Assembly: GCF_010500615.1 (NCBI RefSeq) | Contig: NZ_JAAGNX010000001.1 | Location: forward strand, 1,069,531-1,133,530 | Length of the DNA: 64,000 nt | DNA from: Oceanipulchritudo coccoides | GTDB lineage: Bacteria; Verrucomicrobiota; Verrucomicrobiia; Opitutales; Oceanipulchritudinaceae | Direction of reading: 5' to 3' | Shown here: piece by piece, positions 18,927-47,864 of the stretch | Layout: the number at the start of each line of letters is the position of its first letter | Position numbering within the stretch: position 1 is the stretch's first letter | Position numbers and translations under genes: made by a program | The notes under the pieces: model-generated | Told to the model about the DNA's origin: nothing | Database searches by the model: none | The model's input: the letters and a program-made list of their open reading frames with translations, nothing else

Positions 18927-19142
18927 ATGTCAGATCATATATATAAAAAAGTGGAAATAGTTGGTTCATCGAAGGAATCGGTGGAAAAGGCCGTTGAGAA
19001 TGCAGTCAGTCGCGCATCCAAGTCCCTGCACAACCTGCGATGGTTCGAGGTTCAGGAAATCCGTGGACACATAGACAACGGCAAAGTCGATCATTGGCAG
19101 GTAGGGGTGAAGATCGGGTTTACCCTGGATGAGAACGACTGA
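18927..19142 (+). CDS. Dodecin family flavin-binding protein
   Basis: 71 residues matching dodecin over the whole length: [11 protein letters not shown]-type first strand, one amphipathic helix ([20 protein letters not shown]), then [17 protein letters not shown] and [12 protein letters not shown]. Dodecins form hollow dodecamers that store or buffer flavins. A CAGGA Shine-Dalgarno-like stretch precedes the ATG. The last codons overlap the start of the phosphopantetheinyl transferase gene by 14 bases, so the two are co-translated. Confidence 0.93.
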
Positions 19143-19812
19143 TCAAGCGCTGCTGCAGGGCCTCTTTCCCCCTGAGATAAGCACTTCCTGTTCCGAGCCC
19201 GGAATCTTCCGGGACCAGGTCTTTCCCGAGGAATGGGCATTGGTCGAGTCCGCTGTTGCCAAGCGCCAGGCTGAGTTTTGCGGGGGCCGGGTCAGTGCAC
19301 ATCTGGCGTTGGAAAAGCTTGGCATAGCCAAGACGCCCATTCTTTCAAATCCCGACCGGTCGCCATGCTGGCCTGCGGGGGTTGTTGGCACGATATCCCA
19401 TACAAAGGGTTTTTGTGGGGCAGCTGTTTGCCAAAGAGGGGAGATAATCGGCCTGGGGCTGGATATTGAATTGGCTGAGCCACTTGATGAGAAGTTGATC
19501 CGCAGGATTTGTACTGCGGGGGAACAGGGTTGGTTATCCGGTTACCCGGTTGGGCAGGCAGGTCTTTTTGCCAAACTGGTATTTTGTATCAAGGAGGCAG
19601 CCTACAAATGCCAGTATCCCATTACCCGTCAGTTTATTGAATTCCACCAGGCGGAGGTACGGCTCGATCCGGGGGCAAAGACCTACGAGATTGTTTTCAC
19701 GGGTTTGAAATCCGGTACGCCTCAATATTGTGCCCAAATTGGAGGGAAGTACGACATGACGGATACCCATGTCTTCGCAAGCGCAGTAATTCGCCGGGAA
19801 TCGCCCGAATAA
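19129..19812 (+). CDS. 4'-phosphopantetheinyl transferase, EntD/Sfp type
   Basis: 227 residues with the Sfp/EntD motifs in order: [17 protein letters not shown] (the R..EF..GR..A motif), [25 protein letters not shown] (metal-binding Asp and Glu) and [10 protein letters not shown] (the KE..YK motif). These enzymes attach the pantetheine arm to carrier proteins. The gene is 2.2 kb from the NRPS end and is the likely activator of the T domains of the NRPS and the free carrier protein in this window. It overlaps the dodecin gene by 14 bases. Confidence 0.93.
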
Positions 19813-19828
19813 ACCGAAGGAACGATTG

Positions 19829-20533
19829 TTATTCTGAAACAGGCGGTTTTTGCGCCTCTATGACGATTGTTTCCAATTCAAAGAATTCCCTTGGTTTGCG
19901 GGTGGTGTTTTCCAACTCGCAAAGGGCAGGCTCGGAACTTTCGCATACTGGGAGTTCCCGGACTTCAATAAACCCTGAATCAGCCAGCGACCGGGACAGG
20001 GATTCGCGGTCATAGATGAATTGGTGCCCCCAGTCCCTGACAAAGTTATTGATGTAATAAACCGGATCATCGGCAGGTGCCCATGGCATGCTGCTTTTGT
20101 GCTGGTGATCAAGGTAAGCCTTCGTCAGCTCATCGGGCTCGGCGAAATAGGTGCCAATGACAAAGGCAAGATCTGGCGTGGCGGTGCGGATGACTCCTCC
20201 CGGTCGCAGGACCCTGAAACATTCGTCAAGCATGACCCGCCCCTGGGAATAGGAGAGATGCTCGATCAGATGTTCACTGAAGATATAGTCAAAGGCGTTG
20301 TCCGGATATGGGAACCGCCTTGTCGCATTCAGGTAGAACGAATTCTTGCTGGCCAGATGCATGTCTGTATTCAGCCAGGAATCCAACGGATGATGTCCGC
20401 AACCGATATGCAATTTCGGGGAAGTAGACTGCTTGAGGTATCGGGCCTCCGGGCTCCAGCTTGGCAAGCCGATTCGCTGGTAGACAAGACTCGCGTATCT
20501 TCGAAGACGTAACTGAATGCCGAGGGGTGTCAT
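19829..20533 (-). CDS. SAM-dependent methyltransferase (class I)
   Basis: 234 residues from the ATG at 20533; a TTG at 20569 would add 12. Motif I is KLHIGCGHHPLDSWLNTD, then YPDNAFDYIFSEHLIEHLSY and the post-motif ECFRVLRPGGVIRTATPD, typical of family 11 methyltransferases related to those in polysaccharide and natural-product clusters. The gene is convergent with the phosphopantetheinyl transferase and divergent from the glycosyltransferase. Its location suggests it may tailor the NRPS product or a surface glycan, but the substrate is not deducible. Confidence 0.85.
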   Translation of the reverse strand: MTPLGIQLRLRRYASLVYQRIGLPSWSPEARYLKQSTSPKLHIGCGHHPLDSWLNTDMHLASKNSFYLNATRRFPYPDNAFDYIFSEHLIEHLSYSQGRVMLDECFRVLRPGGVIRTATPDLAFVIGTYFAEPDELTKAYLDHQHKSSMPWAPADDPVYYINNFVRDWGHQFIYDRESLSRSLADSGFIEVRELPVCESSEPALCELENTTRKPREFFELETIVIEAQKPPVSE

Positions 20534-20652
20534 GAAAATGCAGGGTAGGGCCGACCCGTCTTTAAGCAATTCTATAAAAGAAGGGAGGCCTCAATGGACA
20601 TTCAATAATTGAATTGTTGCCGCACCCCCTGATCCTTCCATAGAAACAGATA

Positions 20653-22008
20653 ATGGCTCACATTCTTTGCATGTCGACCGGCACATCCGGAATCCTGAAT
20701 TCCAGTTTGCAGTTGGTGGCGCGGTTACAGGCATTGGGGCACCGGGTCACCTATGCGAGTCCCCGGCCGGTTGGGGACATTATTGAAGCGGAAGGGGTTG
20801 AATTTCTGCAATTGCCAGCTGTTACCGGCCAAACGGAGCCTCCGTTGCCGGAGGGAATCAAACAATTGGGCGACTTCCGACGTTTCCTTTGGAAGGTCCG
20901 TCGTAAAGGAATCCGGCAAGCAGAGGCAGTTGACCGACTGGGTGTGGGATCCTTCTCCGGCATGTTGGACGATCTCTCTCCCGATGTGGTGCTCGCCCAT
21001 GTCGAATTGCACGAATTTATCATCACTTCGGTAGCGAAAAAGTTCAACGTTATCCTGTTCTGCTCATGGTTCAGCATTTGGAATCGGCCGGGTCTTCCAC
21101 CGATCGAATCAACAATTGTTCCCGGTAACGGATTCAAGGGAAGCCGGCTGGGAATCCGTCTGGCTTGGGCCAGGAGAATGATGAAGCGATGGAAGGAAAA
21201 CCAGTCTTCGGCATGGTCATCGGGATTCACGGATCGTCGTTCGGCCCTGCGTTGCTATGCCAAGTCCATTGGCTTTCCACGCAGGCTTCTACAGAATTAT
21301 AATTGGCCTCCGCCGTTTACTTACAGTGAACTTCCCGTGCTGAGCATGACTGCCGGTGAGCTGGACTTTCCTCACTCAGTACGTCCAAATTTTCAATATA
21401 TCGGCCCAATGGTAAAAACCCGACGGGCGGAAGCGCGCGTTGATGAAGGGACTCGAGAAAAAGTCACACGCGTACTTGAGGATTGTCGGCAAAACGGAAG
21501 AAGGCTCATCCATCTTGCGGCAACGTCAATGCATGCAGGTGATGTCAGCTTCCTTGCCCGTATCCTCCAAGCTGTGGGCTCCCGGCCTGACTGGGTTCTG
21601 ATTGGCGGCCTTGGGCATGCCTCGACTCTCGAGGAGTTGAAGGATATCCCGCCGAATGCCCACGTTTTTGAAATGATTCCGCAGCTGGCGGTGTTAAGGC
21701 AGGCTCATTGCTCCATCAACCATGGTGGCATCAACTCCATAAACGAGTGTCTTGTATTCAGGGTTCCGATACTTGTCTACTCCGGTGGGATGTTCGACCA
21801 GAATGGATGCGCTGCCCGCGTTGCTTACCACGGCATCGGCCTGCGGGGAGATAAATCAGATAGTGTTGAGGCAATCGTGCAACGCATCGAGGAAATCCTG
21901 ACGGACGAATCAATTGCCCGGAAACTGCAGGAAACCGCCTCACAGTATGAGGGCGAAGAGGCAGGCAAGCGCTTCAGTCAATTGATGGACAAGTTGATAT
22001 CCACTTAG
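20653..22008 (+). CDS. GT1-family glycosyltransferase (UGT/MGT-like)
   Basis: 451 residues in a GT-B fold: the N-terminal Rossmann start HILCMSTGTSGILNSSLQLV with LQALGHRVTYASP, and the C-terminal nucleotide-sugar site INHGGINSINECLVFRVPIL with DQNGCAARV, matching the HGG..S..E pattern of GT1 enzymes that glycosylate lipids, macrolides and glycopeptides. It is convergent with the NRPS, the stops being 12 bases apart, so it belongs to the natural-product neighbourhood and might attach a sugar to the NRPS product. A role in glycolipid synthesis is the alternative. Confidence 0.85.
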   Translation: MAHILCMSTGTSGILNSSLQLVARLQALGHRVTYASPRPVGDIIEAEGVEFLQLPAVTGQTEPPLPEGIKQLGDFRRFLWKVRRKGIRQAEAVDRLGVGSFSGMLDDLSPDVVLAHVELHEFIITSVAKKFNVILFCSWFSIWNRPGLPPIESTIVPGNGFKGSRLGIRLAWARRMMKRWKENQSSAWSSGFTDRRSALRCYAKSIGFPRRLLQNYNWPPPFTYSELPVLSMTAGELDFPHSVRPNFQYIGPMVKTRRAEARVDEGTREKVTRVLEDCRQNGRRLIHLAATSMHAGDVSFLARILQAVGSRPDWVLIGGLGHASTLEELKDIPPNAHVFEMIPQLAVLRQAHCSINHGGINSINECLVFRVPILVYSGGMFDQNGCAARVAYHGIGLRGDKSDSVEAIVQRIEEILTDESIARKLQETASQYEGEEAGKRFSQLMDKLIST

Positions 22009-22020: not shown

Positions 22021-25000
22021 TCAGGCTTTGGTGTGTATTTGATCCAGGAGCCTGACAAGAGCTTTGGCGACTTTCCCGATTCGGGCTTCCTCCATCATCT
22101 GCGTGTGCTCGACATCGACAATTTCCCGGTAAAGGCGACCCTTCGCGAATCGGTCCCAGCCAACCCATTTGTCATTCCTTGAGTAAACCGAATCGGACAA
22201 CAGCAAGGCGACATCCCCATAGTAGGGTTTTGGCTTGGTGGCATCCAAGAGGAAAAAATTCGCCTCGATTTGCTGGCGGGTGGCTTCCGGGAGTTCCGGC
22301 AATTCAAAGTGGTCTTCAATATCCCGCTCAAGTCCTGTTCCTTTTGAATTGAAGAGCCGCTTCAGGCGTTTCCCGATCTTGTAACTCCAGCCTCGTATCC
22401 GCTGGGTGAGGCTATGCAGGTTTTCGTCGCGCAGGAGTTTCAGAAGATATCTCGGACGGTAGCGGACCAGGTTCAAGTACATGAAGTCGATGGCCACAAG
22501 CGGATACAGCTTCAGGCCCTGCTCGCTCATTTTATGCAGCATCTGGAGTGCGACCCCCGCTCCGAAGCAATAGCCACCCAGAAGAAATCGCCCGTCCGGA
22601 AAATTCTGAAGGACAAGGTCAGTATAATGTTCAGCCATTTCATCCACGTTTGTGAATGTCCTACTTGGTGCGCGAATGGCATAAAAGGGCTGATCATCCG
22701 GCAAATGTTGTCCGAGAAGATGGTACTGGTAAATATCCCCATCCAGCGGGTGAATCATTATCAGGGGGATCTTGTCACCCATTGCCTTGATTGGAACAAG
22801 CAGGGAGTCGTCTTTTGCATTATTGCTTGCAGAGGATTTGGTCTGAACAAGATTGGCTAGTGAGCGGATTGTCGGGGCTTGGAAAATTGCGTCCATGGCA
22901 ACTTCTTGATCGAGGGCATCGTTGAGCTCCGCGATCAGGTAAGTGGCCAGCAGGGAGTTTCCTCCGATGGAAAAGAAATCGGCTTCGAGTCCCAGGGGTT
23001 TCCTCTGGAAGACTGCCTGCCAGATTTCCTGAATGTGTGATTCAACGGGGTTTCCGGGAACTGTTCCTCCTGTCAGAAATGCACTCTCGGGCTCAGATTC
23101 CAGCGGATCAACGCGTTTGAAGGGACTGGGAGCGCATTTCAAGTCTGCAAGCGACTGGTCCAAGACCTTGTCCAAGCCTGAGAAAATGTCGCTAAAGCGT
23201 GAAGCAAGATGATCAGCCACAGCAGGATCGATAGCCTCCCGGTCAACAATGACATCAATGTAGAATCCATTCCAATTCCGGAAAATGACCGTCAACGGGT
23301 AACCCGAAGTGAATCCTCCCTTGATATCCGATATGGAAAGCGAATCTGGATCATCCTCTTTATTCTGATCAATTGGCTGGTTTGCAAAAATAAAAAGGCA
23401 ATCAAACAACGGGAGAGTCCGCGGAAGGTCTGTCCATTCAAGTATCTGTTTTTCACTACAGTAATCAAACTCCCGGTACTTTTGGAGTTGTCCGAAGAAT
23501 TCGCGGCACCACTCCTTGAATGTCAACCTCCTGTTTAGATGGGCGACAACCGGGATTGTATTGGCGAGCATTCCAGCCATGTTTTCCTCCCCCGGAACCC
23601 GGTCGTACCTGCCGGAGACCGTTAAGCCAGTTACGACCCGGTCAGTCTCGAGCAGCTCGGACAGAAGAACTGTCCAAGTCGAGAGCAAGACGGCGAACGG
23701 TGTGATGCGGCATTCTCCGGCGACCTTTTCCAACCCGCCCTGCTCAAGACTTTCCATCCTCAAGGAGACCCTGTGCCGCTCCCTGGGTTGGTTGTCCGTA
23801 TCTGCTTCAAGTTGCAGGGTGGCTGAAACGAGCGGGCTGTTTTTCATTCCCTTGAATTGGGACCTCCAGAACATGCGCGCCCTCGTATGTGACCTTGAGA
23901 AAAGCCATTCGCAGTAATCCTTAAAAGGAGCGCTTTCAACCCTTTCAGGAGCCACTCCGGAAAGCAGTTGGTTATAGGCCTTCACCATCCTCCGGAGGAT
24001 CAGTGCACTTGACCATCCATCGAGGATGATATGGTGGCAGGTCCAGAGCAGCCATGTGGATGTTTCCGATGCCCGGAGAATGGACAAGCGGAAGGTCGGG
24101 GCCGTGGCCAATTGTAACGGAGTGGCCACCTCCTTTTCCGTGATCGATGCCAATTGTGATGCGGTCTCCTCATCTGAACAATTCATGCAGTCGACAATCG
24201 AGACGTCCCACTCCACTTTTTGGTGAACAAACTGCACGGGTTCAGACAATTCTTCCCAATGGACAGTTGTCCGCATTACAGGGAATGTCTCGACGACGTG
24301 TTGCCATGCCTCGCGGAACAGGGACTCCTTGAAAACACCCGTCAGGGCAAGCTTTAGCTGAATTTGACCCTGGTCCTCAGAGTTCTTCTGGAGGTGATGG
24401 GCGAGGAGGGTTGATTGCGCATTGGTCAGCGGATAGGCCAGTTGCCCGCTTTCCTGTTGGAGAATGGTATCAGTCGCTTGTGAAAGAAATGCGCGGGTAT
24501 CATCCGCGAGTTTTGTGATCGTGGACTTTCGGTGGAGGTTCCTGCTGAAAGACCAGTTTGCGACCAACCTGTCAGCTGACAGGAAAGCGTTTACCTCAAT
24601 GATGGCCGTTCTTGGTGATTCCTTCTTTCGATCATCTCCTATCGACCATTTTATTACGCTGAGGGGCCCTTTATCGACGGCCGTTTCCAGTCTTCCAAGG
24701 TAGTTGAGGGTGACCTCAGCATCAGGAACCGCGGAAATTTCCGGGTCGTTCCGTGCAAGGTACTTCAATATCCCAAATCCCACGCCTCGATTCGGGATAT
24801 CATCCAGTTCAGCTTGGATGCCCTTGAAAAAGACACGGTCAGAGGAGGAATTCCGGGCATTCAGAACTACCGGAAATTGACTGGTGAACCAGCCGACGGT
24901 GCGTGTTGTATCGAGAGGTTGAACACAGTCTTCCCGGCCGTGTCCCTCGAGGTCGACAAGGATCGAACTGGAAGAGCACCATTTCCCCAAGGACCGAATA

Positions 25001-28000
25001 ATTCCGCCGTATAGGATTGCCTGTACAGTGACGCCAAGCTTGCTGGCAACTTCAATGATTTGCCCAGTTTCCTTTTGATTGAATTCCAGTTGGAGGATTT
25101 CCTCACTGCCCTCCAGATTATCCTCAGGAGTTCCTGAATCGAGAGGGATCTTAGGACATCTTCTATAGGCCTGGTTTTTCCAAAAATTAATTTCCCCTTG
25201 AATGGCCTTGCTTCCCGAGAAATCCGCGAGGGCCTTTGCCCATGTCCGGAAGGGGGCCGTTTTTGGAGGAAGGGCAGAGGGGGCGCCAGGGCTGATATCG
25301 AGCAATGATTGAAGATCCTCCAGAAGGATCTTCCAGGAAACCCAGTCGACAGCGATGTGGTTAATGATCAGGAGGAGTTGGTTTTCTTCCCTGTCCTCGC
25401 TGTGAAAGAATGCCCCTCTGACCAGCTCACCTTTCTCAAGATTGATTGACTTGTGAAGCTCGTCTGCAGTGCGTCGGATGATGGATTGCCTGTCCCCGTC
25501 GGGGCAATGGACAGATTCAAGTTGGAAGGACCTGCCATTGTTGGGAAGAATAACCTGTTTCCATTCAGAGTCTTTTTTGCAGATAGCAGTCCGGAGCGCA
25601 TCATGGTGGTCAATCAGCTTAAGGATGCTTTCCTGTATGTCCTCAATTTTAATGACAGCATCCACTTTCAAGAGGACGGAAAGGTTCCAATGACTGGGGT
25701 CCAAGTTTTTCTTTTCGAGCAGCCACGATTGTATGGGCGTCAATGGAGCTTCGCCGATCGGTTTATCTTTAAGTGTTTTTGGTGGAGTGGCAGGGTTGGC
25801 TAAATTAGCCAGTTCGCCGATGGACTTGGATGCGAGGAGTTGTCCAACCGTAATGGATAGCCCAGCCTCCCGGGCGCGGGCTACTGCCTGGATAGCCAGA
25901 ATGGAATCGCCGCCGAGATTGAAGAAATTGTCCTCGTGACTTATTTGTTGAATTCCCAACACTCCCTTCAGGATTTCCGAAATTGAATCTTCTCTCTCCT
26001 GTCTGTGTTCGAGATCACTGCCGGGAACCGATACCTGCACTTCAAGCTGAAGGTGGGATTGAAGGGCCCTCAGATCGACCTTGCCATTGGGCAGGCAAGG
26101 GAGCTGGGCCAAGGCGATTAGCCGAGCCGGAATCATGTATTCAGGGATCCTCGTCGCCAAATGTGCTTTTAAATCCTGCGTGATGGATGATTCGGCCTTC
26201 TCCTTGGTTTCGACAAATCCAACCAAGTAGCTGGGGGCATCCTCACGCTCAACGATGATTACCGCAGCAGCTGTAACATGGGGATTTGATAGTAATGCCT
26301 CCTCAATCTCACCTGTCTCAATACGGTAGCCCCTGACTTTCACCTGATTGTCCAGACGGCCTAGAAAATGCAGGTTTCCGGATGAGTCCCAGATTCCCTG
26401 GTCACCTGTGCGATAGATTCGGCCGATCGGGGGAAGCTCGTGGAAACATTCCGCGGTGGATTCTGGTCGATTCAGGTAGCCCGGCGTGACCCCTTTGCCC
26501 CCAATGCAGATTTCCCCGGGCAATCCGGGAGCCATCAGGCGATTGTGCCTGTCAACAACATGAACAATGGAATTCGGAATAGGCTTCCCGATTGGAATTC
26601 TCCCAGTCGCTGATTCAACCCTATCAATGGCATGTACTGTCGACCAGACTGTTGCCTCGGTTGGACCGTATTCATTGTATAGACGGCAGTCCGGAAGATT
26701 CTCGAAATGGGCCTCCACAAGTGACGGGGGACAGCTTTCCCCAGCCACAATGGCCATCTTCAAACTCTGGAGGTTTGACCCGTTCAATCGCAGGATTTCC
26801 CTGTAGTAGCTTGGCACGCACAGAAGGGATTTTACCTTGTGTTCCCGGATGAAGGCACCCAGTTGCTCAGGATCCTGAATCATTTGACGGTCAGGAAGAC
26901 ACAGGGTCCCGCCGCTCATCAAGGTCCAGAAAACTCCCGCAACGGAGCTGTCGAATGACAGACTGGGAATCAAAAGAAAGTTTCCAGGATTCTCCGGATA
27001 GTAGTGGAAGCGGGCTCCGGTTGAATGCATCAAGCAGGCTGATGGGACCGATACGCCTTTGGGTTTCCCCGATGAGCCCGAGGTGTAGATAATGTAGGCA
27101 GCCTGTTCTTCCGCAGGTAGGGGAAGAGAAGCTCCGGAATCCGCATCGGCAACGAGGACGGATTCCGTCAATACCTCAATGGATGATCCGTAAGCAATTG
27201 TTCCAGCCAAATCGGGGGTGGTAATAACCATACCGGCTCCCGAATCTTCAACCATGAAGCGCAACCGCTCATCCGGATAGTCTGGATCAAGCGGCAGGTA
27301 CGGCCTTCCCGCCCTTTGCACGGCCAGCAGGGCGACGATGGCATCGGCTGATCTTGGGATTAGCACGCCAATGGGTTCATCCTGTCCGCCGCATCGCTGC
27401 AAAATGGCCTTGGCCAGCGCGGTCACACGGCATTTTAGATCCGCATAGGTGAGTGAATCTTCCGGTCCAATGATCGCCAGCGATTCGCCGCCGGCTTCGT
27501 GTGATTCCAGCTGGAGGGAACCAATGCCGGAGTTAAGGATTTCGGGAATAACGGCTCCCTGACTAAAGGTATCGACCTGACTGATGTCTTCATCAGTCAT
27601 GTAGTTTATTTTGGATACAGGGGTTCCCATATTAGAAACGAGTTCCCTGAGGATGACAGAGTATCTCCCAAGCAATCTTCTTATCGAGTCCGCGTTGAAG
27701 AGGCAGGACCTGTATTCGATAGCCAATTCAAAGCTGTCTTTGCCTTCAATCACGAAGAGAGTCAGGTCAAACTTCGATCTTTCCCCTTCAACCCATTTCG
27801 TGGTTGAAGTTGAATCTCCCAAGCGGACCGATGGTGAAACGTCGTCTTCCTGCTGGAAAACAAACATGTGTTGAAAGAGTGGATGGCGCCCGGAAACACG
27901 CTCGTAATCCACTTCCTTCAAGACCCGGTCAAGCCCGACGTCCTGGTTTGCAATAGCCTCAAGGTAGGCCTCTCGCACGGCCTGAAGGGCTTCACGGCAA

Positions 28001-31000
28001 GTGGGATTGGAAGAGAATTCCTGCCTTAGACACAGTGTGTTCAGGAAAAATCCAATCATGCCACCGGTTTCACGGTAACGTCTGTTGGCAACCGGTGTTC
28101 CAATGAGGATATCATCTGTCCGGCTGTACAGGCTGAGGAGGAGTTGGAACCCGAGAAGGAAGACCGGGAAGCTGGAGGATCCCCCGCTTGTGCCGAGTTC
28201 CTTGATGGCGTCGACAAGCTGACCTCGCAGGATGATCTTTTCCGTCGATCCAATGTCCGTCAGTTCAGCTGGGTACGGCCGGTCTGTGGCAAGAGTGAGT
28301 GGGCCTGGTGGATTCTCAAGGACGCCTTTCCAGTATGCCAATTGCTGATCCAGCTTTCCCGACTGGTTATCCAGAATCTGACTGTAGGCAAAATCCGTAT
28401 AGTCGAACTGAGGCTCTGGCAATCCGTGTCCAGCCCCTTTACAGAGGGCATTAAAGATTCTGCTGAACTCCCTGAAAAAGATTCCAGAGGACCACTCATC
28501 AAAGATGATATGGTGGAAAGAAAACCCGATGAGAGTTCTTCCATCCGAACTTCCGCATACCAGCCGGTAAAGGGGACCTTCTTCAAGGTCGAAGGGCAGG
28601 AGAAGAGATTCGGATACTTTAGCCTCGAGCAGTTCAGCATTATCCCCCTCAACGATATCCATCCGGGCGGGCGTGCTCTGATCGATAACCTGCACGAGTT
28701 GCCCATCTTGAAGCGTGAAGGTTGTTCTCAACACAGGGTGGCGCCGGAGCATCTCATCCATGGTTTGACGGATCCGCTCAACCTCAATGGTGTCGACGGG
28801 GTATTCCAGATACTGGGCGATGTTATAGTTAGGCGAGCTTGGCTCAACCTGGTGCAGAAGCCATATCCGCTGCTGCCCAGGGGAAGCCAGAGCCGGTTCA
28901 TTGGCGGGGCGCTTAATGATGCCATCAACTTGTTTGTGATCCGCCCGGAGTGACCCCTTTGCCTTTGGTTCCGTTTCCTCTCCCGAAGTCGATGATGCTT
29001 TCCGCCTGATGGCTTCTTTAACCTTTTCGGAGATGCGAGTGATCGTGCTCTCCTGGAAGATGGTTTGTAGTGGGAGGTCCACTTCAAAGGCATTGCCGGT
29101 CAATAACATTGCTTCCATGGCGGCCAGCGACGTCCCGCCCAATTGGAAAAAATTACTGGTGGCGCTTATGCGTTCCGCTCCAATCACGGATTTCCAGATT
29201 TCGGCCACCTGTTCCTCAACCTCTCCGGAAGGCGCGATAAACTGTCCAATGTCCTCAAGGTCTGCCTCGTCTGGATTCGGGAGTGCACTGAAGTCAGTCT
29301 TGCCATTCGGGGTGAGGGGAATGCTCTTGAGAGGAATGAAGCGGTGGGGAATTAACTCATCAGGGAGGCGGTTCGATAGATAGATTCGCAGGTCTTCCTC
29401 CCTGAGAGGTTCCACTGCAACATAGTAGCCGACCATCCGACCGGGTTGGTAACTGCTGACGACACAGGCTTCAATTCCGTGATGTTGCAACAGCGAGCGT
29501 TCGACCTCACCCGGTTCAATTCGGAAGCCGGAAATCTTTAGTTGCCGGTCGATCCTTCCCAAGTACTGAAGGAGCCCGCGCTCATTGAAGCGCACCAGAT
29601 CGCCTGTCCGGTATAGTCTCTGCCCTTCCTGCCAAGGGTGGGGGACAAATTTCTCAGCATTGAGTTCATCCCGTCCGTGGTAACCGCTGGTTAATCCGTG
29701 CCGGGAAATGCACAGTTCCCCAGGTATTCCCGGAAGGACAGGATTGAGCCTGCCATTGAGGACGTATAATTGCACATGATCAGCAGGCTTCCCTATCGGA
29801 ACACTGATTTCCCGGTCGGCCTTCGAATCGAATTTATGTATCATGCACCCCACTACAGCTTCGGTTGGTCCGTACTCGTTGAAAATTTCAACCGGCTTGG
29901 GAAACTGTCTGGAGATAGTATCGGCAAGATGGACCTTCAGGTCTTCACCACCGAGGATCATCCTCCGAATGCGGGAAGTCGAGAGATCCAGTTGCTGCAA
30001 CAGGGACAAATGGGATGGCGTCAGCTTGATCAGATCGACTTGGTTATCCCTGATCACGTCAACGACAGCTGAGTCGACTGGTCCGTCACTTTCCTCGTAA
30101 ATGACAAGCGTACCGCCGGTCATGAGGGGAAGGAACAGGCTGGTGACGGTCAGGTCGAAGGAAAGGGAAGTAAACAGGGGAAAGGCCAGTTGTTCCCCGC
30201 GGACATACTGACGTTCCGCCCATTCGAGGTAATCCGAGAGCCCATCATGGTTTATCGGGACACCTTTTGGCTGACCTGTCGAACCGGAGGTATAGATCAT
30301 GTAGGCTTGGTCTGAAAGCGATGGCATGCTTCTTTCCGTGGTGGCAACCTTGTTCCTTGGCTTGTCGAGGTCCAAGACATTCCCCTCAAACCCGTGGAGC
30401 TTCTCCTGTAGTCCGCGGTGTGTGAGGACCAACTTGGCACCGCAGTCGCCGAGGATGTAGGCAAGTCGTGAAGGTGGGTATTCCGGATCAAGCGGGACGT
30501 AAGCCGCACCGGAGTTGAGGACGGCAAAAATCCCGGTCACGGCATCAATTGAGCGCCGCATGCAGACCGCAACGACTGTTCCCGAGCCAACGCCTCGCTC
30601 AATCAAGAGCGCGGACAGGGAGGCAACCCTCTCACCGAGCTCAGAGTAGGAAAGGCTCTCTTGACCCTCTCGGACTGCAATCCTGTCGGGCGTAGTGTCT
30701 ATCTGGGCTTGAAAATGTTCAACGACCGTCTTCTCCGGAAACGGTTGTTCATCCGTTGAATTGAAGTTGAAAAGGAATGCTTCTTTATCAGCTTCAGAAA
30801 GCGTAGGGACTTCTCCAATACAAGTATCGCAATTCTCAAGAAAGGCGTTGATAATGGAACGCATGAGGAAGGTTCCCCGTTCCTGCTCGGTAGTGGAGAA
30901 GCACGACTTGTTGAAATCCAGGTACAACGTGAATGCTCCTGTTCCATTGTAATCATGGATCTGCATCTGGAATCCGTGAACGCTGTCGCAATGTCCGGAA

Positions 31001-32127
31001 TGTATCCACTCAGATTCCAGGGCAATGCCGTCAACCTTCTTGAATGGCTGGGGAGAATAGTTCAGGATGGCGCTGCTTGCGTTGCGTTGACCGACAAAAC
31101 TGCTGCCGGGCCCACAGGCTTTGAGCAGGGATTGCGTTTCTGCGAGGCAGTTTTTCCCAAGCGTCGCAAAGGTGTCCTCCTCATCAATCTCCACGCAGAA
31201 AGGCAACATTTCGAGAAACAGTCCGAGTGATTTTCTCGATACAGGGCTCGGACGGTTCGCCATTGGCATGTCAAAACGAAAGGTTCTCTGACCACAGACA
31301 TGGTAGAGCCATGCGGATAGGATGGCCGAGAAACCACTTAGCACGGACAGTTCCTGGAAGAGGCTGGCAAACGGAGGCGTTGAAATGACCTTCCGGAATT
31401 TATTGGATTCTTCGGGGGTCAGTTGAATGACAATGCGCTCGGTTTCAGTTGTTTCAGATAGCTTGGGCCGTCCCCAGAACAGGGGCTTGGTAAAAAGGCT
31501 TTCAGGACGTTTATCGAAGTGTCCCTGGGCAGACTCCAGCCTCGCATTTGCCTTATTCTGGATGGAATTGATCGTATCCAGATAGTCAGGTCCGTCCGCG
31601 GAAGTTGCTGACCCCTCCAGAAGGCTTTTGTAGGTTTGAAATACCAGATCGACCAGATTGATTGTCGAAACGGCATCGGTGATCAAGTGATGTTGGTTAA
31701 GATACCAGCCATGGCAGTCTTCATCCAGTTTCAGCAGGACCGAATCCACAAGCTCCCCGTCCAGTGGTAAAACCCTTGAGGCCCGTTCTTCGGACCAGCG
31801 CTTGAATTCCCCTTGGGGATCCGCCTTCACGGTAAGGTCCATCCTTTTCAAGCTGCACGAACCTTCCGGATTTGTTGCGGCCCTGGGCCTTGCTTCCTCA
31901 ACCCGGATCTTCAGGCGTAAAATCGGGTGGTTGTCCACGACTGCCTGCCATGCCTGGGAGAAAGCATCAGGATCAAGCCGTCCGGTAACTTTAAAGGCAA
32001 AAACCGTATTGTAGAGAGGGCTCTCAGGACTGAGATGTTGCCCCATCCAGAAAGGGATCTGGTTGCGGCTCAGGCCGGAATCCTTTTGCAGCTTTTCGTG
32101 CAGGAAATCTGGTTGGGGTTCAGTCAC
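22021..32127 (-). CDS. Three-module nonribosomal peptide synthetase, C-A-T-C-A-T-E-C-T-TE
   Basis: 3,368 residues from a GTG start; the ATG at residue 28 is too late because the C-domain motif SRNQIPFW begins before it. Domains read by motif: C1 (HHLITDA about 146), A1 (YTSGSTGQPKG about 610, NEYGPTE about 750), T1 (LGGTSL about 1000), C2 (HHIIFDEWS about 1208), A2 (YTSGSSGKPKG about 1680, NEYGPTE about 1818), T2 (LGGDSI about 2074), an epimerase domain (NHIAVDWVSW about 2255; EGHGRED about 2393), C3 (HHIILDGWS about 2698), T3 (IGGNSL about 3054) and a thioesterase with GGYCFGAG (about 3183). Module 3 has no A domain. The A1 pocket reads D-L-T-K-I-G-E-V-G-K, one change from the known Asn code. 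A2 reads D-S-A-L-I-A-E-V-W-K, which I cannot assign. Predicted product: starter-L-Asn-D-Xaa-third unit. It follows the ligase gene by 57 bases. Confidence 0.93.
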   Translation of the reverse strand: MTEPQPDFLHEKLQKDSGLSRNQIPFWMGQHLSPESPLYNTVFAFKVTGRLDPDAFSQAWQAVVDNHPILRLKIRVEEARPRAATNPEGSCSLKRMDLTVKADPQGEFKRWSEERASRVLPLDGELVDSVLLKLDEDCHGWYLNQHHLITDAVSTINLVDLVFQTYKSLLEGSATSADGPDYLDTINSIQNKANARLESAQGHFDKRPESLFTKPLFWGRPKLSETTETERIVIQLTPEESNKFRKVISTPPFASLFQELSVLSGFSAILSAWLYHVCGQRTFRFDMPMANRPSPVSRKSLGLFLEMLPFCVEIDEEDTFATLGKNCLAETQSLLKACGPGSSFVGQRNASSAILNYSPQPFKKVDGIALESEWIHSGHCDSVHGFQMQIHDYNGTGAFTLYLDFNKSCFSTTEQERGTFLMRSIINAFLENCDTCIGEVPTLSEADKEAFLFNFNSTDEQPFPEKTVVEHFQAQIDTTPDRIAVREGQESLSYSELGERVASLSALLIERGVGSGTVVAVCMRRSIDAVTGIFAVLNSGAAYVPLDPEYPPSRLAYILGDCGAKLVLTHRGLQEKLHGFEGNVLDLDKPRNKVATTERSMPSLSDQAYMIYTSGSTGQPKGVPINHDGLSDYLEWAERQYVRGEQLAFPLFTSLSFDLTVTSLFLPLMTGGTLVIYEESDGPVDSAVVDVIRDNQVDLIKLTPSHLSLLQQLDLSTSRIRRMILGGEDLKVHLADTISRQFPKPVEIFNEYGPTEAVVGCMIHKFDSKADREISVPIGKPADHVQLYVLNGRLNPVLPGIPGELCISRHGLTSGYHGRDELNAEKFVPHPWQEGQRLYRTGDLVRFNERGLLQYLGRIDRQLKISGFRIEPGEVERSLLQHHGIEACVVSSYQPGRMVGYYVAVEPLREEDLRIYLSNRLPDELIPHRFIPLKSIPLTPNGKTDFSALPNPDEADLEDIGQFIAPSGEVEEQVAEIWKSVIGAERISATSNFFQLGGTSLAAMEAMLLTGNAFEVDLPLQTIFQESTITRISEKVKEAIRRKASSTSGEETEPKAKGSLRADHKQVDGIIKRPANEPALASPGQQRIWLLHQVEPSSPNYNIAQYLEYPVDTIEVERIRQTMDEMLRRHPVLRTTFTLQDGQLVQVIDQSTPARMDIVEGDNAELLEAKVSESLLLPFDLEEGPLYRLVCGSSDGRTLIGFSFHHIIFDEWSSGIFFREFSRIFNALCKGAGHGLPEPQFDYTDFAYSQILDNQSGKLDQQLAYWKGVLENPPGPLTLATDRPYPAELTDIGSTEKIILRGQLVDAIKELGTSGGSSSFPVFLLGFQLLLSLYSRTDDILIGTPVANRRYRETGGMIGFFLNTLCLRQEFSSNPTCREALQAVREAYLEAIANQDVGLDRVLKEVDYERVSGRHPLFQHMFVFQQEDDVSPSVRLGDSTSTTKWVEGERSKFDLTLFVIEGKDSFELAIEYRSCLFNADSIRRLLGRYSVILRELVSNMGTPVSKINYMTDEDISQVDTFSQGAVIPEILNSGIGSLQLESHEAGGESLAIIGPEDSLTYADLKCRVTALAKAILQRCGGQDEPIGVLIPRSADAIVALLAVQRAGRPYLPLDPDYPDERLRFMVEDSGAGMVITTPDLAGTIAYGSSIEVLTESVLVADADSGASLPLPAEEQAAYIIYTSGSSGKPKGVSVPSACLMHSTGARFHYYPENPGNFLLIPSLSFDSSVAGVFWTLMSGGTLCLPDRQMIQDPEQLGAFIREHKVKSLLCVPSYYREILRLNGSNLQSLKMAIVAGESCPPSLVEAHFENLPDCRLYNEYGPTEATVWSTVHAIDRVESATGRIPIGKPIPNSIVHVVDRHNRLMAPGLPGEICIGGKGVTPGYLNRPESTAECFHELPPIGRIYRTGDQGIWDSSGNLHFLGRLDNQVKVRGYRIETGEIEEALLSNPHVTAAAVIIVEREDAPSYLVGFVETKEKAESSITQDLKAHLATRIPEYMIPARLIALAQLPCLPNGKVDLRALQSHLQLEVQVSVPGSDLEHRQEREDSISEILKGVLGIQQISHEDNFFNLGGDSILAIQAVARAREAGLSITVGQLLASKSIGELANLANPATPPKTLKDKPIGEAPLTPIQSWLLEKKNLDPSHWNLSVLLKVDAVIKIEDIQESILKLIDHHDALRTAICKKDSEWKQVILPNNGRSFQLESVHCPDGDRQSIIRRTADELHKSINLEKGELVRGAFFHSEDREENQLLLIINHIAVDWVSWKILLEDLQSLLDISPGAPSALPPKTAPFRTWAKALADFSGSKAIQGEINFWKNQAYRRCPKIPLDSGTPEDNLEGSEEILQLEFNQKETGQIIEVASKLGVTVQAILYGGIIRSLGKWCSSSSILVDLEGHGREDCVQPLDTTRTVGWFTSQFPVVLNARNSSSDRVFFKGIQAELDDIPNRGVGFGILKYLARNDPEISAVPDAEVTLNYLGRLETAVDKGPLSVIKWSIGDDRKKESPRTAIIEVNAFLSADRLVANWSFSRNLHRKSTITKLADDTRAFLSQATDTILQQESGQLAYPLTNAQSTLLAHHLQKNSEDQGQIQLKLALTGVFKESLFREAWQHVVETFPVMRTTVHWEELSEPVQFVHQKVEWDVSIVDCMNCSDEETASQLASITEKEVATPLQLATAPTFRLSILRASETSTWLLWTCHHIILDGWSSALILRRMVKAYNQLLSGVAPERVESAPFKDYCEWLFSRSHTRARMFWRSQFKGMKNSPLVSATLQLEADTDNQPRERHRVSLRMESLEQGGLEKVAGECRITPFAVLLSTWTVLLSELLETDRVVTGLTVSGRYDRVPGEENMAGMLANTIPVVAHLNRRLTFKEWCREFFGQLQKYREFDYCSEKQILEWTDLPRTLPLFDCLFIFANQPIDQNKEDDPDSLSISDIKGGFTSGYPLTVIFRNWNGFYIDVIVDREAIDPAVADHLASRFSDIFSGLDKVLDQSLADLKCAPSPFKRVDPLESEPESAFLTGGTVPGNPVESHIQEIWQAVFQRKPLGLEADFFSIGGNSLLATYLIAELNDALDQEVAMDAIFQAPTIRSLANLVQTKSSASNNAKDDSLLVPIKAMGDKIPLIMIHPLDGDIYQYHLLGQHLPDDQPFYAIRAPSRTFTNVDEMAEHYTDLVLQNFPDGRFLLGGYCFGAGVALQMLHKMSEQGLKLYPLVAIDFMYLNLVRYRPRYLLKLLRDENLHSLTQRIRGWSYKIGKRLKRLFNSKGTGLERDIEDHFELPELPEATRQQIEANFFLLDATKPKPYYGDVALLLSDSVYSRNDKWVGWDRFAKGRLYREIVDVEHTQMMEEARIGKVAKALVRLLDQIHTKA

Positions 32128-32184: not shown

Positions 32185-33789
32185 TCAATTTTCAAAATTC
32201 GAGGAATCCACGAAAGATGAAAGCCTTCGCCGGTCGATTTTTCCGGTTGAGGTCCGTGGCAGGTCGTCAGCAAAGACGGTCCTTTGAGGGATTGCATAGG
32301 CCGGAAGAGCCTTGGCGAGGTGCTTGTGCAGTTGCCCGGGTTCGACTGTCGCGCCTTCCTTGAGGCGCAAAACAGCAACGAGAGCCTTCTCTCCGGATGG
32401 CAGATCATGCAAGATAGCACATCCCTCCTGGACTTGGGGAATGCTGTGCAGGGCATGTTCAACTTCATCCAATTCAAGGCGGTAACCACGAATCTTTATC
32501 TGCCGGTCACGCCTTCCGTGAAAGTGAAGGAGCCCCTCCTTATCAAGTTGGACCAGGTCGCCGGTCTTGTAGAAGGCAATGGGAATACCGGGTACTTGTT
32601 CCCTCATGACAATCCCTTTTGCCGTCAGCTCTGGCCGCCCCCAATATCCTTTCATCATTGTCTTGCTGTGGATCAGCAACTCCCCGATTTCTCCGGGTGG
32701 GGTCAGGGAACCGTCGGGATTCTCAATCCGGCCTGTGGCCCCATCCCACACCTTCCCGAGGGGAATGGGCTTATTTGGATTCAACTTTCCGGGATCGATA
32801 TGGAATACGGTACACTGATTAACTTCAGCGGGACCGTATACATTCGAATACCTCGCCTTGGGCCAGATCTTCATCAACCGGATCATGTGCTTGGTCGGAA
32901 ACGGTTCCCCGGCGTAAATGACCCAACGCAAAGCAGGCTGTGGTCGGCTCTTCAAATCCACATTCGTTATCAGCTGGACCAAGGCCAGGGGGACCGAATA
33001 CCAGATTGTCAGGGCTTTTTCCTCGATCAGCTGGGCAAGGCTTGAAGGAAACAGCATCGCATCCTCTGGAATGATCACGGTTGTAGCACCGCGTGAGGGG
33101 CCCGTAAAGAACTCGAAAAGGGCCATGTCAAAGTGTAGCCGGGAATGGTTTCCCATACGGTCCTCGGGAGTTATTCCGTAGGTAATTCCCGAATACAAGG
33201 CGTAAGCCACCCCACTGGAATGGGTGTGCATCATGCCTTTAGGTTCCCCGGTGGACCCCGATGTATACAAAATGTAGGCAAGGTCGTGGTCCTTGACTTT
33301 ATCTGATGGAGCAGTGTCGGGAAAGTCCTGCAAGCTGCGCCAAGGAAGGCACCGGGTATCACTGCCTGCCAGGGCGTTCTCGTCCAATCCAACAACAACC
33401 TTGAGCTCAGCACCCTCGTCCAATGCCTTGTTTAGGGATTTCCGGCGTTCGGGTCGTGTTATGAGATGGGTGATCTGGCAATCCTTGATGATGAAGGCCA
33501 CCCTTGCTGGTGGCGCACCCGGATCTATGGGCACAAACACTGCCCCGGCCTTAAGGATGCCATAGACAGCAACCGGGATCTCCAAGCTCTTGTTCAGATA
33601 AACCCCAACACAGTCTCCCGCTTTGACACCTTCCTCGACTAATAAATGGGCCAGCTTGTTAGCCTGTTTTGCCGCTTCGGCGTAAGTGAGGTGCTGTTCG
33701 GAAAATTCAAATGCGACTTTGTCCGGCAATTTGGCTGCCGACTTGTCCAGAAAATGGTGGATCAGTGATGGAGTATTTTCCGCAGGCAT
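32185..33789 (-). CDS. Free-standing amino acid:carrier-protein ligase (PltF/DltA-like A domain)
   Basis: 534 residues: one adenylation domain without a fused carrier. Core motifs: YILYTSGSTGEPKG (P-loop), NVYGPAE, YKTGDL, GRRDRQIKIRGYRLE and the catalytic Lys in TSTGKIDRR. The segments LHFDMALFEFF, IWYSVPLALV and YAGEPFPTKH closely resemble free-standing ligases such as PltF that load proline on a separate carrier. The pocket reads D-M-F-Y-I-A-V-Q-C-K; the PltF-type proline code as I recall it shares the D, Y, A, C and K. A small or nonpolar amino acid is likely. Its start overlaps the stop of the carrier protein gene by one base (TAATG), a strong sign they act together. Confidence 0.88.
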   Translation of the reverse strand: MPAENTPSLIHHFLDKSAAKLPDKVAFEFSEQHLTYAEAAKQANKLAHLLVEEGVKAGDCVGVYLNKSLEIPVAVYGILKAGAVFVPIDPGAPPARVAFIIKDCQITHLITRPERRKSLNKALDEGAELKVVVGLDENALAGSDTRCLPWRSLQDFPDTAPSDKVKDHDLAYILYTSGSTGEPKGMMHTHSSGVAYALYSGITYGITPEDRMGNHSRLHFDMALFEFFTGPSRGATTVIIPEDAMLFPSSLAQLIEEKALTIWYSVPLALVQLITNVDLKSRPQPALRWVIYAGEPFPTKHMIRLMKIWPKARYSNVYGPAEVNQCTVFHIDPGKLNPNKPIPLGKVWDGATGRIENPDGSLTPPGEIGELLIHSKTMMKGYWGRPELTAKGIVMREQVPGIPIAFYKTGDLVQLDKEGLLHFHGRRDRQIKIRGYRLELDEVEHALHSIPQVQEGCAILHDLPSGEKALVAVLRLKEGATVEPGQLHKHLAKALPAYAIPQRTVFADDLPRTSTGKIDRRRLSSFVDSSNFEN

Positions 33790-34022
33790 TATGGGTGCTT
33801 CAATTTCCCCTCGATGTAGCCAGCAATAATCTGGAGTGAGCGGAAATTATCCGGAATCAATTCATCGTGGGGAACAGTCACTTGGAATTTATTTTCAATG
33901 AAGGCAATGGCTTCCATCATGGAGACCGAATCTACCTGGCCACTGCTGAAAAGGTCTTCCTCCGGATCAAGGTCCAAGCCATTTTCCGCGAAGTGTTCCG
34001 AGATGGACTGAAGAACGCTCAT
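33789..34022 (-). CDS. Free-standing acyl/peptidyl carrier protein
   Basis: 77 residues, the usual carrier size, with the pantetheine site Ser32 in GQVDSVSMMEAIAF and the acidic four-helix pattern (ENGLDLDPEEDLF; FIENKFQVTVPHDELIPDNF). The ATG at 34022 has a good Shine-Dalgarno (AAAGGA). The same frame is open to 34346 but that part overlaps the HupE-like gene and has no carrier character. It sits 38 bases after the HupE-like gene and its stop is fused to the start of the ligase. It probably delivers an aminoacyl group to the NRPS, either to C1 as starter or to the A-less third module. Confidence 0.88.
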   Translation of the reverse strand: MSVLQSISEHFAENGLDLDPEEDLFSSGQVDSVSMMEAIAFIENKFQVTVPHDELIPDNFRSLQIIAGYIEGKLKHP

Positions 34023-34060: not shown

Positions 34061-35251
34061 TCAACCCAGACCGAACGCCCTCTGGACAAACCAGAAGCCG
34101 GCGACCAGTGTGAGGACTGCCGATCCGCCTTGGAGAATGACAGGCTGGTAGGAAGGATGCTTCCGCAGGAAGAAAAGCAATGGGAAGATGGCTGCGACGA
34201 TCACCATCTGGCCAAGTTCGACACCGATATTGAACCCAAGGACAACCTTCAGGGCATCCTGCATGCGGAACGGGAGTTCGCCCATCACGGAGGCAAAGCC
34301 CAGTCCATGGAACAAGCCGAGGATGACGATCATGATTGAGGTCCAACTTCCGACCTTGAAGAAAATATTATTCACCCCGACGATGATGATGGAGAGGGCA
34401 ATGATCGATTCAACCAGCCGGCTGGATATGGATATAAAATCAAGGGCGGCCAAGGCAAGGGTGATGGAGTGCGCAATGGTGAACAGGGTCACGATTTTAA
34501 ACACCCTCCAGAGGACGCTGTGAAATTTTTCCACTGGAATCACTTTGTCATCCTTCCTGATCAGGACAGTCGGCAGTAGCAGGCAGAGGAGGAAAAGGAT
34601 GTGGTCAATTCCTATCCAGATATGAAGGACTCCCTGCGGAACCATGGCACGGGCTCCAAGCATTGAAGGAATATTTGTCAGATCAAGTTCCTGCACGGAG
34701 GTGCTGGAGCCGAAAATCATATGGGCCGATTCGTCCCCGTGTTTCATGCCCGTATGATAGTTGTTCATGATCCCGACAAGTCCACGATGAAGCCTGCCCG
34801 TTTCCTGAAGCATCGTGTTCTCAATCGTTATGACATTGGGAATGGGGTTTTCCGCCTTCATCACAAAGTCATACTTGGCAAACCGCATGAATCCCAGATC
34901 CCGCAGCCCGACTTCCTTGAATTCCAATGGGTAGGATTCACCAGCCCCGCTGATTTTGAAGTGTTCGGGGATATAGGCTTGGACTACTTCCGCGTTCTCC
35001 TGAACAACAGCCAGCCAGTCCTCCTTTTTCTCGGACTTGATACCGAACTTTTTCTCAAGGTCGTCGGTATTGATCTCAAATGTGCCGACCAGACGGTCTT
35101 CGTACACATCAAAAAACACGTAATTCTCACCGCTGGTGTGTGCCCTTAACGGATTCGTCACGAAGAGAAGCGTCATCACGAAAAGAGGCAGAATCGTGCG
35201 GGAGGTGAACTGTTGGACTCTTGTCCAAGAAAAATAGGGTAAACTACTCAT
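34061..35251 (-). CDS. HupE/UreJ-like membrane protein with secreted N-terminal domain
   Basis: 396 residues from the ATG at 35251 (AAGG upstream); a TTG at 35275 is the alternative. A signal or first helix is followed by a periplasmic domain of about 170 residues (YVFFDVYEDRLVGTFEINTD...). The second half has about six helices with WIGIDHILFLLCLLL, TIAHSITLAL, VESIIALSIIIVGVNN and GLFHGLGFASVM. The His- and Asp-rich helix motifs G.DHILF and FHGLGFA are those of HupE/UreJ proteins, some of which move nickel or cobalt. It is the first gene of the carrier-ligase-NRPS operon, so export, uptake or metal supply for the product are all possible. Confidence 0.82.
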   Translation of the reverse strand: MSSLPYFSWTRVQQFTSRTILPLFVMTLLFVTNPLRAHTSGENYVFFDVYEDRLVGTFEINTDDLEKKFGIKSEKKEDWLAVVQENAEVVQAYIPEHFKISGAGESYPLEFKEVGLRDLGFMRFAKYDFVMKAENPIPNVITIENTMLQETGRLHRGLVGIMNNYHTGMKHGDESAHMIFGSSTSVQELDLTNIPSMLGARAMVPQGVLHIWIGIDHILFLLCLLLPTVLIRKDDKVIPVEKFHSVLWRVFKIVTLFTIAHSITLALAALDFISISSRLVESIIALSIIIVGVNNIFFKVGSWTSIMIVILGLFHGLGFASVMGELPFRMQDALKVVLGFNIGVELGQMVIVAAIFPLLFFLRKHPSYQPVILQGGSAVLTLVAGFWFVQRAFGLG

Positions 35252-44168: not shown

Positions 44169-44275
44169 TTTATAATTTTCGTTTCATACCGATTCATTCG
44201 CATTCGCTAAAAATACCATAAAAATATGGACAACAGGTATTTACAAAGCGATTATGTGCTTCAGTGCGAAACGGT

Positions 44276-45577: not shown

Positions 45578-45889
45578 GAAAATAGGGGCTGATTACTTTC
45601 AGGATTAACCGGGAATATCGGACCCGTATTTTTTATTGCCGAGATTGGGCTGAATATCCGGGTAATTTTAAAATAGCTACGTAGCCAGTTACACTCCCGA
45701 TAATGAAATTGGCACCAAAACGCACCATCTGGTGCCAATTGACACCAATCGGCGCGCTTTGACTCCGATCGGCGCGCAATCTTTTGAATATCAATATTTT
45801 ATGTTGACGGTGACTAAAATGTTATGGCTCGAATATAAGTGTAACACGGCAAATCGTGTCACTTTGATTCACTACAAACATAAGGAAAT
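45578..45889. promoter_or_regulatory. 312-base gene-free control region with palindromes and iteron-like repeats
   Basis: No gene is visible between the integrase and the HTH gene. It holds an inverted repeat TTGGCACC ... GGTGCCAA (45709-45716, 45731-45738), two direct repeats with 20-base period ending in ATCGGCGCGC (45739-45757 and 45759-45777) and a second palindrome before the HTH gene. AT-rich sequence follows the repeats. The layout fits an operator array or a small replication origin for the HTH and DUF3987 proteins. Confidence 0.55.
45841..45862. promoter_or_regulatory. Inverted repeat before the HTH gene, possible operator
   Basis: GTAACACG and CGTGTCAC, 7 of 8 positions paired, across a 6-base spacer, 28 bases before the HTH start codon. 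Position suggests autoregulation by the HTH protein or control by an integrase-side regulator. Confidence 0.45.
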
Positions 45890-46078: not shown

Positions 46079-46079
46079 T

Positions 46080-47576: not shown

Positions 47577-47597
47577 GTTCTTCTGAAATCAAAAAAA

Positions 47598-47697: not shown

Positions 47698-47864
47698 TTT
47701 TTAAGTTCCCACTGATTTTGATCATCTGGACCGGAAGAGTTTGATTTCCGGTGAATTCTTTGAGTTGCCCACTGAAATTATAAGAGTCATTCATTTAGGC
47801 AAAATTCGAGTGCATACGCGGCTGCGAGTGCGGAGAGCTGGCGGGAGAGGAATGGTACGACTCT

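What the first reader, a model, noticed from the sequence alone, without database searches (positions are those of the whole stretch)
22021..32127. NRPS with an A-less third module and separate ligase-carrier pair
The order C-A-T-C-A-T-E-C-T-TE leaves T3 without its own adenylation domain, while a free ligase and free carrier lie directly upstream in the same operon. An N-terminal C domain also needs a donor. The product would be starter-Asn-D-Xaa-third unit, with in-trans loading at one or both ends; I know no named product of this design.
Basis: partly seen in the sequence, partly recalled or inferred. Interest (0 to 1): 0.66.

Follow-up and report, generated by a model that had tools for sequence, protein, structure and literature searches.

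The report
Likely metal-scavenging peptide NRPS operon
This is an operon for a small peptide made without ribosomes, built around asparagine and histidine; it belongs to an uncharacterised gene cluster family found in many bacterial phyla and most likely makes a compound that captures copper, nickel or another metal.

Summary
One 3368-aa NRPS (22021-32127, minus) reads C1-A1-T1-C2-A2-T2-E-C3-T3-TE, with 30 residues between C3 and T3. Upstream in the same operon lie a free ligase, a free carrier and a HupE/UreJ-2 permease. Codes read Asn/Asp for A1 (DLTKIGEVG) and His for A2 (DSALIAEVW).

The operon is a trimmed member of a family seen in 66 loci from about nine phyla. Relatives often add a prolyl-carrier-dehydrogenase-like gene, an AMDH-type insertion in A1 (known from albicidin and cystobactamid) and a TonB receptor. 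All 14 "short" relatives, whose NRPS ends C-A-T-TE, still keep ligase and carrier. So that pair most likely loads a proline-like starter for C1, not T3. T3 is probably charged by A2 with a second histidine (inferred).

The permease resembles copper-binding "anglerase" HupE/UreJ-2 proteins: the His at its apparent mature N-terminus is kept in 48 of 48 aligned sequences, and its model best matches PDB 9gce. Best reading: Pro-Asn-D-His-(His?), a peptide for transition-metal uptake. Metal, product and T3 loading are unproven. My searches found no described product. The A-less C-T-TE design itself is known from syringomycin.

The parts
34061..35251 (-). HupE/UreJ-2 permease with an N-terminal anglerase-like domain; His at the apparent mature N-terminus
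   Evidence: PF13795 150 bits, cut-off 24.5; His column 48 of 48; model best match 9gce, Z 11.6. The reference used in the calls starts at 35236, five codons after the ATG at 35251; signal peptide judged by eye.
33789..34022 (-). free carrier protein, 77 aa, DSVS phosphopantetheine site
   Evidence: PF00550 30.4 bits, cut-off 20.8
32185..33789 (-). free adenylating ligase, PltF/PigI type; pocket read by eye D-M-F-Y-I-A-V-Q-C
   Evidence: PF00501 and PF13193; highest-scoring PDB chain matched in one stretch is 6o6e, an L-proline--[prolyl-carrier protein] ligase, which also ranks first for the pocket fragment; pocket
22021..32127 (-). NRPS, 3368 aa: C1-A1-T1-C2-A2-T2-E-C3-T3-TE
30826..32073 (-). 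C1, N-terminal condensation domain that needs a donor
   Evidence: aa 19-434; 58 of 58 C1 domains form one clade, support 0.69
29248..30714 (-). A1, code DLTKIGEVG = Asn/Asp; no AMDH insertion
   Evidence: code in PMC12283262
29023..29235 (-). T1
   Evidence: HMM match aa 971-1008; outer limits approximate
27583..28887 (-). C2
   Evidence: aa 1081-1515
26053..27495 (-). A2, code DSALIAEVW = His
   Evidence: DSALIAEVWK discussed among His-activating domains in PMC12283262
25813..26010 (-). T2
   Evidence: HMM match aa 2046-2096; outer limits approximate
24505..25755 (-). E, epimerase; first His of the HHxxxD motif is Asn here
   Evidence: aa 2125-2541
23131..24423 (-). C3, groups with C domains that follow an E domain; HHIILDG intact
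   Evidence: aa 2569-2999
22846..23043 (-). T3, no A domain of its own; GGNS intact
   Evidence: HMM match aa 3029-3071
22051..22779 (-). TE with a Cys at the nucleophile position (GYCFG)
   Evidence: aa 3117-3359
20653..22008 (+). GT1 glycosyltransferase, convergent; homologue in 8 of 66 related loci
   Evidence: 30-41% identity in those eight
19129..19812 (+). phosphopantetheinyl transferase (PptT-like), probable carrier activator
   Evidence: no BLAST match among the ORFs of related loci

Best explanation
A biosynthesis and uptake operon for a short histidine-containing peptide that binds a transition metal (Cu, Ni or Zn). The ligase adenylates a proline-like amino acid and loads the free carrier (inferred from family). 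The carrier is the donor for C1, which joins it to Asn on T1. C2 adds His, loaded by A2 on T2; E makes it D-His; C3, which groups with C domains that follow an E domain, passes the chain to an amino acid on T3. T3 is loaded across modules, most likely by A2 with a second His (inferred). The Cys thioesterase releases the product. Starter-Xaa-His puts His third, the spacing of an amino-terminal Cu/Ni-binding (ATCUN) motif (recalled chemistry). The product would be secreted and the metal recovered through a TonB receptor and the HupE/UreJ-2 permease of the same operon. Shown: gene order, domain order, codes, family conservation, permease fold match. Inferred: substrates, order of chemistry, metal, transport.
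For: Operon and domains. Codes; A2 reads DS[AVT]L..A.EVW in 47 of 47 readable sequences (48 aligned). The ligase's pocket fragment matches the prolyl-carrier ligases 6o6e and 7thn first. The dehydrogenase of the same-genus relative scores best against PigA and RedW, prolyl-carrier dehydrogenases, below both cut-offs. In 45 related loci of at least 17 kb: carrier 45, C1 45, HupE 40, dehydrogenase 38, TonB receptor 28; in 14 control loci: dehydrogenase 1, the others 0 (limits of this control are in the full report). Ligase and carrier kept in 14 of 14 short clusters. Permease His 48 of 48, TonB HxHGQGY 32 of 32. Permease model: top hit 9gce, Z 11.6, rmsd 3.4, 136 of 168 residues, then Zn-binding ZrgA and PA4063. 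RbAng-1a binds Cu at 74 nM and Ni at 220 nM (PMC12537917, section 8 part 1). C3 groups with all six C2 domains sampled from loci whose first module ends in E.
Against: No match at Rfam gathering thresholds other than a tRNA in the window and nine loci, so no metal riboswitch support. The genome's one TonB match lies on another contig, and that receptor family occurs in 12 of 177 genomes of the order, ten of them without a ligase match: receptor and NRPS are not strictly linked. In 38 of 45 long related loci a dehydrogenase would probably consume the starter amine that ATCUN binding needs, so that reading fits the window better than the family. The window's genome lacks the dehydrogenase, cyclodeaminase and AMDH domain of relatives, so its starter may differ. 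Ligase position 330 is Gln, Val in PltF/PigI. E has Asn for its first His. No exporter appeared among the scanned neighbours; the genome was not searched for one.
Confidence: 0.55

Rival explanations
1. One reading: the ligase-carrier pair loads T3 in trans, as SyrB1 does for the last module of SyrE; C1 gets its donor elsewhere.
For: A-less C-T-TE plus a separate loading protein encoded upstream is the SyrE/SyrB1 pattern (PMC8949500, passages).
Against: All 14 short clusters keep ligase and carrier without an A-less module. The ligase resembles starter-loading PltF/PigI. None of the neighbours given a Pfam scan was a SyrC-like transferase, though the genome was not searched for one.
Confidence: 0.12
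2. Starter as in the best explanation, but T3 receives no amino acid, or one from an A domain outside the cluster (for example the T-TE-A protein on contig 3), so the product is a tripeptide or has an unrelated last residue.
For: Short clusters end after His, so starter-Xaa-His can be a complete product. A T-TE-A protein exists elsewhere in the genome.
Against: HHxxxD is present in 9 of 10 and GGxS in 10 of 10 C-T-TE proteins examined, window included. The T-TE-A gene lies on another contig, with no part of this cluster beside it in the 7 kb read.
Confidence: 0.25
3. The peptide is an antibiotic or signal, not a metal carrier; the metal genes are neighbours for another reason.
For: AMDH-bearing Asn modules are known from the antibiotics albicidin and cystobactamid (PMC7966384, abstract and passages). 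The GT1 gene has matches, all below cut-off, to macrolide glycosyltransferase models including a self-immunity one. The TonB receptor is not strictly linked in the window's order.
Against: HupE in 40 of 45 long related loci from about nine phyla against 0 of 14 controls; a His module throughout.
Confidence: 0.2

Closest known systems
Syringomycin SyrE/SyrB1 (A-less last module)
   Same: last module C-T-TE without an A domain, amino acid supplied from elsewhere (PMC8949500, passages)
   Different: there a dedicated A-T protein lies upstream; here the upstream ligase-carrier pair most likely loads the starter
PltF-PltL / PigI-PigG-PigA prolyl-carrier starters (partner names recalled)
   Same: free PltF/PigI-like ligase and free carrier; the same-genus relative adds a PigA/RedW-like dehydrogenase
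   Different: no dehydrogenase match in the window's genome; ligase has Gln at 330; the acyl group would go to an NRPS C domain
Albicidin AlbIV / cystobactamid CysH (AMDH in an Asn A domain)
   Same: 30 of 30 AMDH-bearing A1 domains of relatives read Asn, as those authors report for AMDH homologues (PMC7966384, passages)
   Different: the window has the Asn code but no AMDH; neighbours differ. I could not fetch AlbIV or CysH, so homology is by fold type, PP-loop and literature, not by direct comparison
Ang-1 HupE/UreJ-2 anglerases (RbAng-1a, PDB 9gce)
   Same: His after the signal peptide, beta-sandwich, then HupE/UreJ-2 permease (PMC12537917, section 8 part 1 and passages)
   Different: 8% identity over the aligned domain; no NRPS is mentioned there ('NRPS' 0 occurrences in the main text)

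Membership tests
[quoted passage not shown]
   150 bits, cut-off 24.5
Anglerase HupE/UreJ-2 permease | His directly after the signal peptide | tested here: met
   aligned His in 48 of 48 sequences; cleavage site judged by eye, no signal-peptide predictor run
Anglerase HupE/UreJ-2 permease | Ang-1-like beta-sandwich domain | tested here: met
   9gce is the top hit, Z 11.6, rmsd 3.4, 136 residues; a sequence-profile search of the PDB did not find it
Anglerase HupE/UreJ-2 permease | binds Cu or Ni | not testable with these tools
   needs purified protein
PltF/PigI prolyl-carrier ligase | sequence closest to this ligase type | tested here: met
   6o6e and 7thn rank first and second for the pocket fragment
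PltF/PigI prolyl-carrier ligase | same substrate pocket | tested here: inconclusive
   Gln for Val at 330, variable 322; the remaining PltF code letters are recalled
AMDH-bearing Asn module | PP-loop domain inserted in A1 | tested here: not met
   absent from the window NRPS and no match in its genome; present in the same-genus relative
NRPS with A-less terminal module (SyrE type) | C-T-TE without A, active-site motifs intact | tested here: met
   30-aa gap, HHIILDG, GGNS
NRPS with A-less terminal module (SyrE type) | dedicated trans-loading protein for the last carrier | tested here: inconclusive
   ligase and carrier present, but kept in 14 of 14 clusters without such a module
Peptide metallophore pathway | metal-binding product and metal-responsive uptake | not testable with these tools
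   needs product isolation and expression data

The most novel reading that the evidence does not exclude
The family makes nonribosomal ATCUN-type metallophores: starter-Xaa-His peptides whose amine, amides and third-position imidazole grip Cu(II) or Ni(II), recovered through an HxHGQGY TonB receptor and an anglerase permease. In the long form one His-specific A domain charges two carriers, giving starter-Xaa-D-His-His.
Probability: 0.3. Interest if true: 0.8.

Novelty: new variant of a known kind. Interest (0 to 1): 0.6.

Why it matters
If true, it would link a widespread class of uncharacterised NRPS clusters, including many with the AMDH domain, to transition-metal uptake, pair a nonribosomal peptide with the recently described anglerase permeases, and give a testable example of one A domain serving two carriers.

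Tried and rejected
Ligase loading T3: lowered, because short clusters keep the pair. Asp amidation by the PP-loop (AMDH) domain, my first idea: rejected, since AMDH-bearing A1 domains already read Asn, 30 of 30, and the literature gives dehydration or aminomutation. Thioamide or amidine formation by that domain: considered, not needed. Metal riboswitch: no Rfam match but a tRNA at gathering thresholds in the window and nine loci. Window methyltransferase 19829-20569 as part of the cluster: no BLAST match among ORFs of related loci, left out. TonB receptor as a strict partner in this order: not supported. A sequence-profile search of the PDB with HupE gave no relevant hit; the fold search did. 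Ten paper searches (held open-access library only) gave no described product of this cluster; I saw listings and abstract starts, and opened five papers by passages or one section (PMC12283262, PMC12537917, PMC4771312, PMC7966384, PMC8949500). MIBiG and antiSMASH comparison was not possible.

Limits of the counts. The 66 loci are those at 36% identity or more among the best 80 that the scan kept of 146 confirmed (it used two peptide patterns, so it samples). Many are metagenome bins, where contamination is possible. The 14 controls are at 27-29%; 10 of 14 are at least 17 kb; most are Actinobacteria by title, which have no outer membrane and so no TonB receptors (recalled), and 9 of 14 also pass my ligase threshold. 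HMMs were built from members of the 66 loci, which favours the 66. The E column is not used, since that model also hits C domains. AMDH with Asn: 30 of 30 against 4 of 22 complete A1 without AMDH, one of the 22 with an unreadable code (Fisher p 1.7e-10); the test ignores relatedness.

Full report
The observation. ORF 22021-32127 (minus) encodes a 3368-aa NRPS. Pfam finds four condensation-type, two adenylation, three carrier and one thioesterase domain, and domain HMMs built here order them C1-A1-T1-C2-A2-T2-E-C3-T3-TE. C3 and T3 are 30 residues apart, so module 3 has no A domain; its HHIILDG and GGNS motifs are intact. Upstream in one operon lie a free ligase, a free carrier whose stop overlaps the ligase start by a base, and a HupE/UreJ-2 protein. 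No other PF00668 match at E up to 0.001 exists in the genome.

Specificity. Codes were read from an alignment of 166 adenylation domains. Window A1 reads DLTKIGEVG and A2 DSALIAEVW. A published survey discusses DLTKIGEVGK under Asp/Asn domains, adding that it also fits beta-cyanoalanine, and DSALIAEVWK under His-activating domains (PMC12283262, passages). Across relatives A2 is uniform: 47 of 47 readable sequences of 48.

A family. A scan of one genome for each of 84,980 species with the ligase pair gave 80 loci, the best of 146 confirmed. Sixty-six (L031-L096, 36-54% identity) share the neighbourhood; 14 (L097-L110, 27-29%) served as controls. By record titles the 66 come from about nine phyla: Bacteroidota, Verrucomicrobiota, Cyanobacteria, Chloroflexi, Acidobacteria, Actinobacteria, Gemmatimonadota, Calditrichaeota and Proteobacteria. 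In the 45 loci of at least 17 kb: carrier 45, C1 45, HupE 40, dehydrogenase 38, TonB receptor 28, PP-loop (AMDH) domain 26, cyclodeaminase 18, GT1 8; in the 14 controls: dehydrogenase 1, the others named here 0. This control is weak for TonB, as most controls are Actinobacteria, and 4 of 14 are under 17 kb. In the window's order the ligase at E up to 1e-100 occurs in 2 of 177 genomes, so the cluster is patchy there.

The same-genus relative. Genome G007 (contig C163, the same length and identity as L031, record CAJXMX010000163.1) has HupE, carrier and ligase (54%), then on the other strand a dehydrogenase and a cyclodeaminase, then C1-A1 with a PP-loop insertion; contig C209 holds the end of an A domain and a T domain, then a second NRPS, C-A-T-E-C-T-TE. 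Searches of the window's genome found no dehydrogenase, PP-loop domain or cyclodeaminase of these kinds.

What the ligase does. The highest-scoring PDB chain it matches in a single stretch is an L-proline--[prolyl-carrier protein] ligase (6o6e), which with 7thn also leads for the pocket fragment. G007's dehydrogenase scores highest against PigA (411 bits, cut-off 500) and RedW (385, cut-off 650), prolyl-carrier dehydrogenases. Among the 66 loci, nine show a C-T-TE or C-TE protein and 14 a C-A-T-TE protein; ligase and carrier are present in all of both. The pair is therefore not tied to the A-less module, and C1 is its likely client.

T3. In 13 loci C-A and the next T-E or T-TE are separate proteins; the first ends at window residues 1958-1983, inside A2, in 13 of 13, and the best match of the second resumes at 1958-1985 in 10 of 13. 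In 12 of the 13 a further gene of about 263 aa (cluster c7) lies between them; it is methyltransferase-like by eye, with no Pfam family and a weak sub-threshold NCBIfam match. Work across chains is thus usual for A2. In the nine long loci no A domain beyond ligase, A1 and A2 is seen in the stretches held, some of which are cut. I infer that A2 also charges T3 with His; this is not shown. C3 groups with C2 domains of loci whose first module ends in E: all six sampled fall in its clade, as do four others without that arrangement.

The thioesterase. The nucleophile position is Cys in 21 of 27 aligned thioesterases, window included, and Ser in 6.

The metal link. The HupE protein has a DUF6702 match under cut-off and a strong HupE_UreJ_2 match. 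A His directly after the apparent signal peptide is present in 48 of 48 aligned sequences. Its model (pLDDT 86) is most like the copper-bound Ang-1 domain 9gce, then Zn-binding ZrgA and PA4063. RbAng-1a binds Cu and Ni at 74 and 220 nM (PMC12537917, section 8 part 1). All 32 TonB receptors examined, one from this genome, carry HxHGQGY; that receptor lies on another contig, and the family is in 12 of 177 genomes of the order, ten without a ligase match. HupE matches at E up to 1e-40 are in 6 of 177 genomes: full length in the two NRPS genomes, and over the membrane part only in four, whose 382-407-aa frames may hold a diverged N-terminal domain. So neither receptor nor permease type is confined to NRPS genomes.

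Known and new. A-less C-T-TE modules with trans supply are known from syringomycin (PMC8949500, passages). The PP-loop insertion corresponds to the AMDH domain of cystobactamid and albicidin, whose authors noted many homologues in Asn A domains of unknown clusters (PMC7966384, passages); I could not compare the sequences directly. What I did not find in the ten paper searches listed is the combination with a His module and an anglerase permease. ATCUN chemistry is recalled, and in relatives with the dehydrogenase the starter amine it needs would probably be lost.

Noticed in passing
L031:8793-9827 (+) and related loci: PP-loop (AMDH) domain inserted in Asn-specific A1; 24 of 24 aligned copies keep C10, C13, C30, C33 and C146, C149, C272. 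C146xxC149 aligns with a CxxC of 8cnz, named mmLarE-[4Fe-4S]: a possible Fe-S site. The CysH authors saw a dark brown protein but no CxxCxxxC motif.
   Followed up: partly
L056:2522-8232 (-) and 12 similar loci: C2-A2 and the next module part are separate ORFs, split inside A2 near the place where AMDH enters A1, with a weakly methyltransferase-like gene between them in 12 of 13.
   Followed up: partly
L040:14829-20000 (+): Pelagicoccus NRPS with a C-terminal part that is 49% identical over 152 aa to a separate methyltransferase-like gene (by eye) beside the NRPS in G007 (L027:1-474).
   Followed up: no
L028:1036-3732 (+): T-TE-A protein (read by eye) elsewhere in the window's genome, beside ORFs that look like an ATP-grasp protein and a glycosyltransferase.
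   Followed up: no
window 44264-54336: Phage-integrase-family gene (44264-45577), low GC at 48-50 kb (0.436) and 52-54 kb (0.412), and a tRNA-Arg at 54260-54336: possible island.
   Followed up: no
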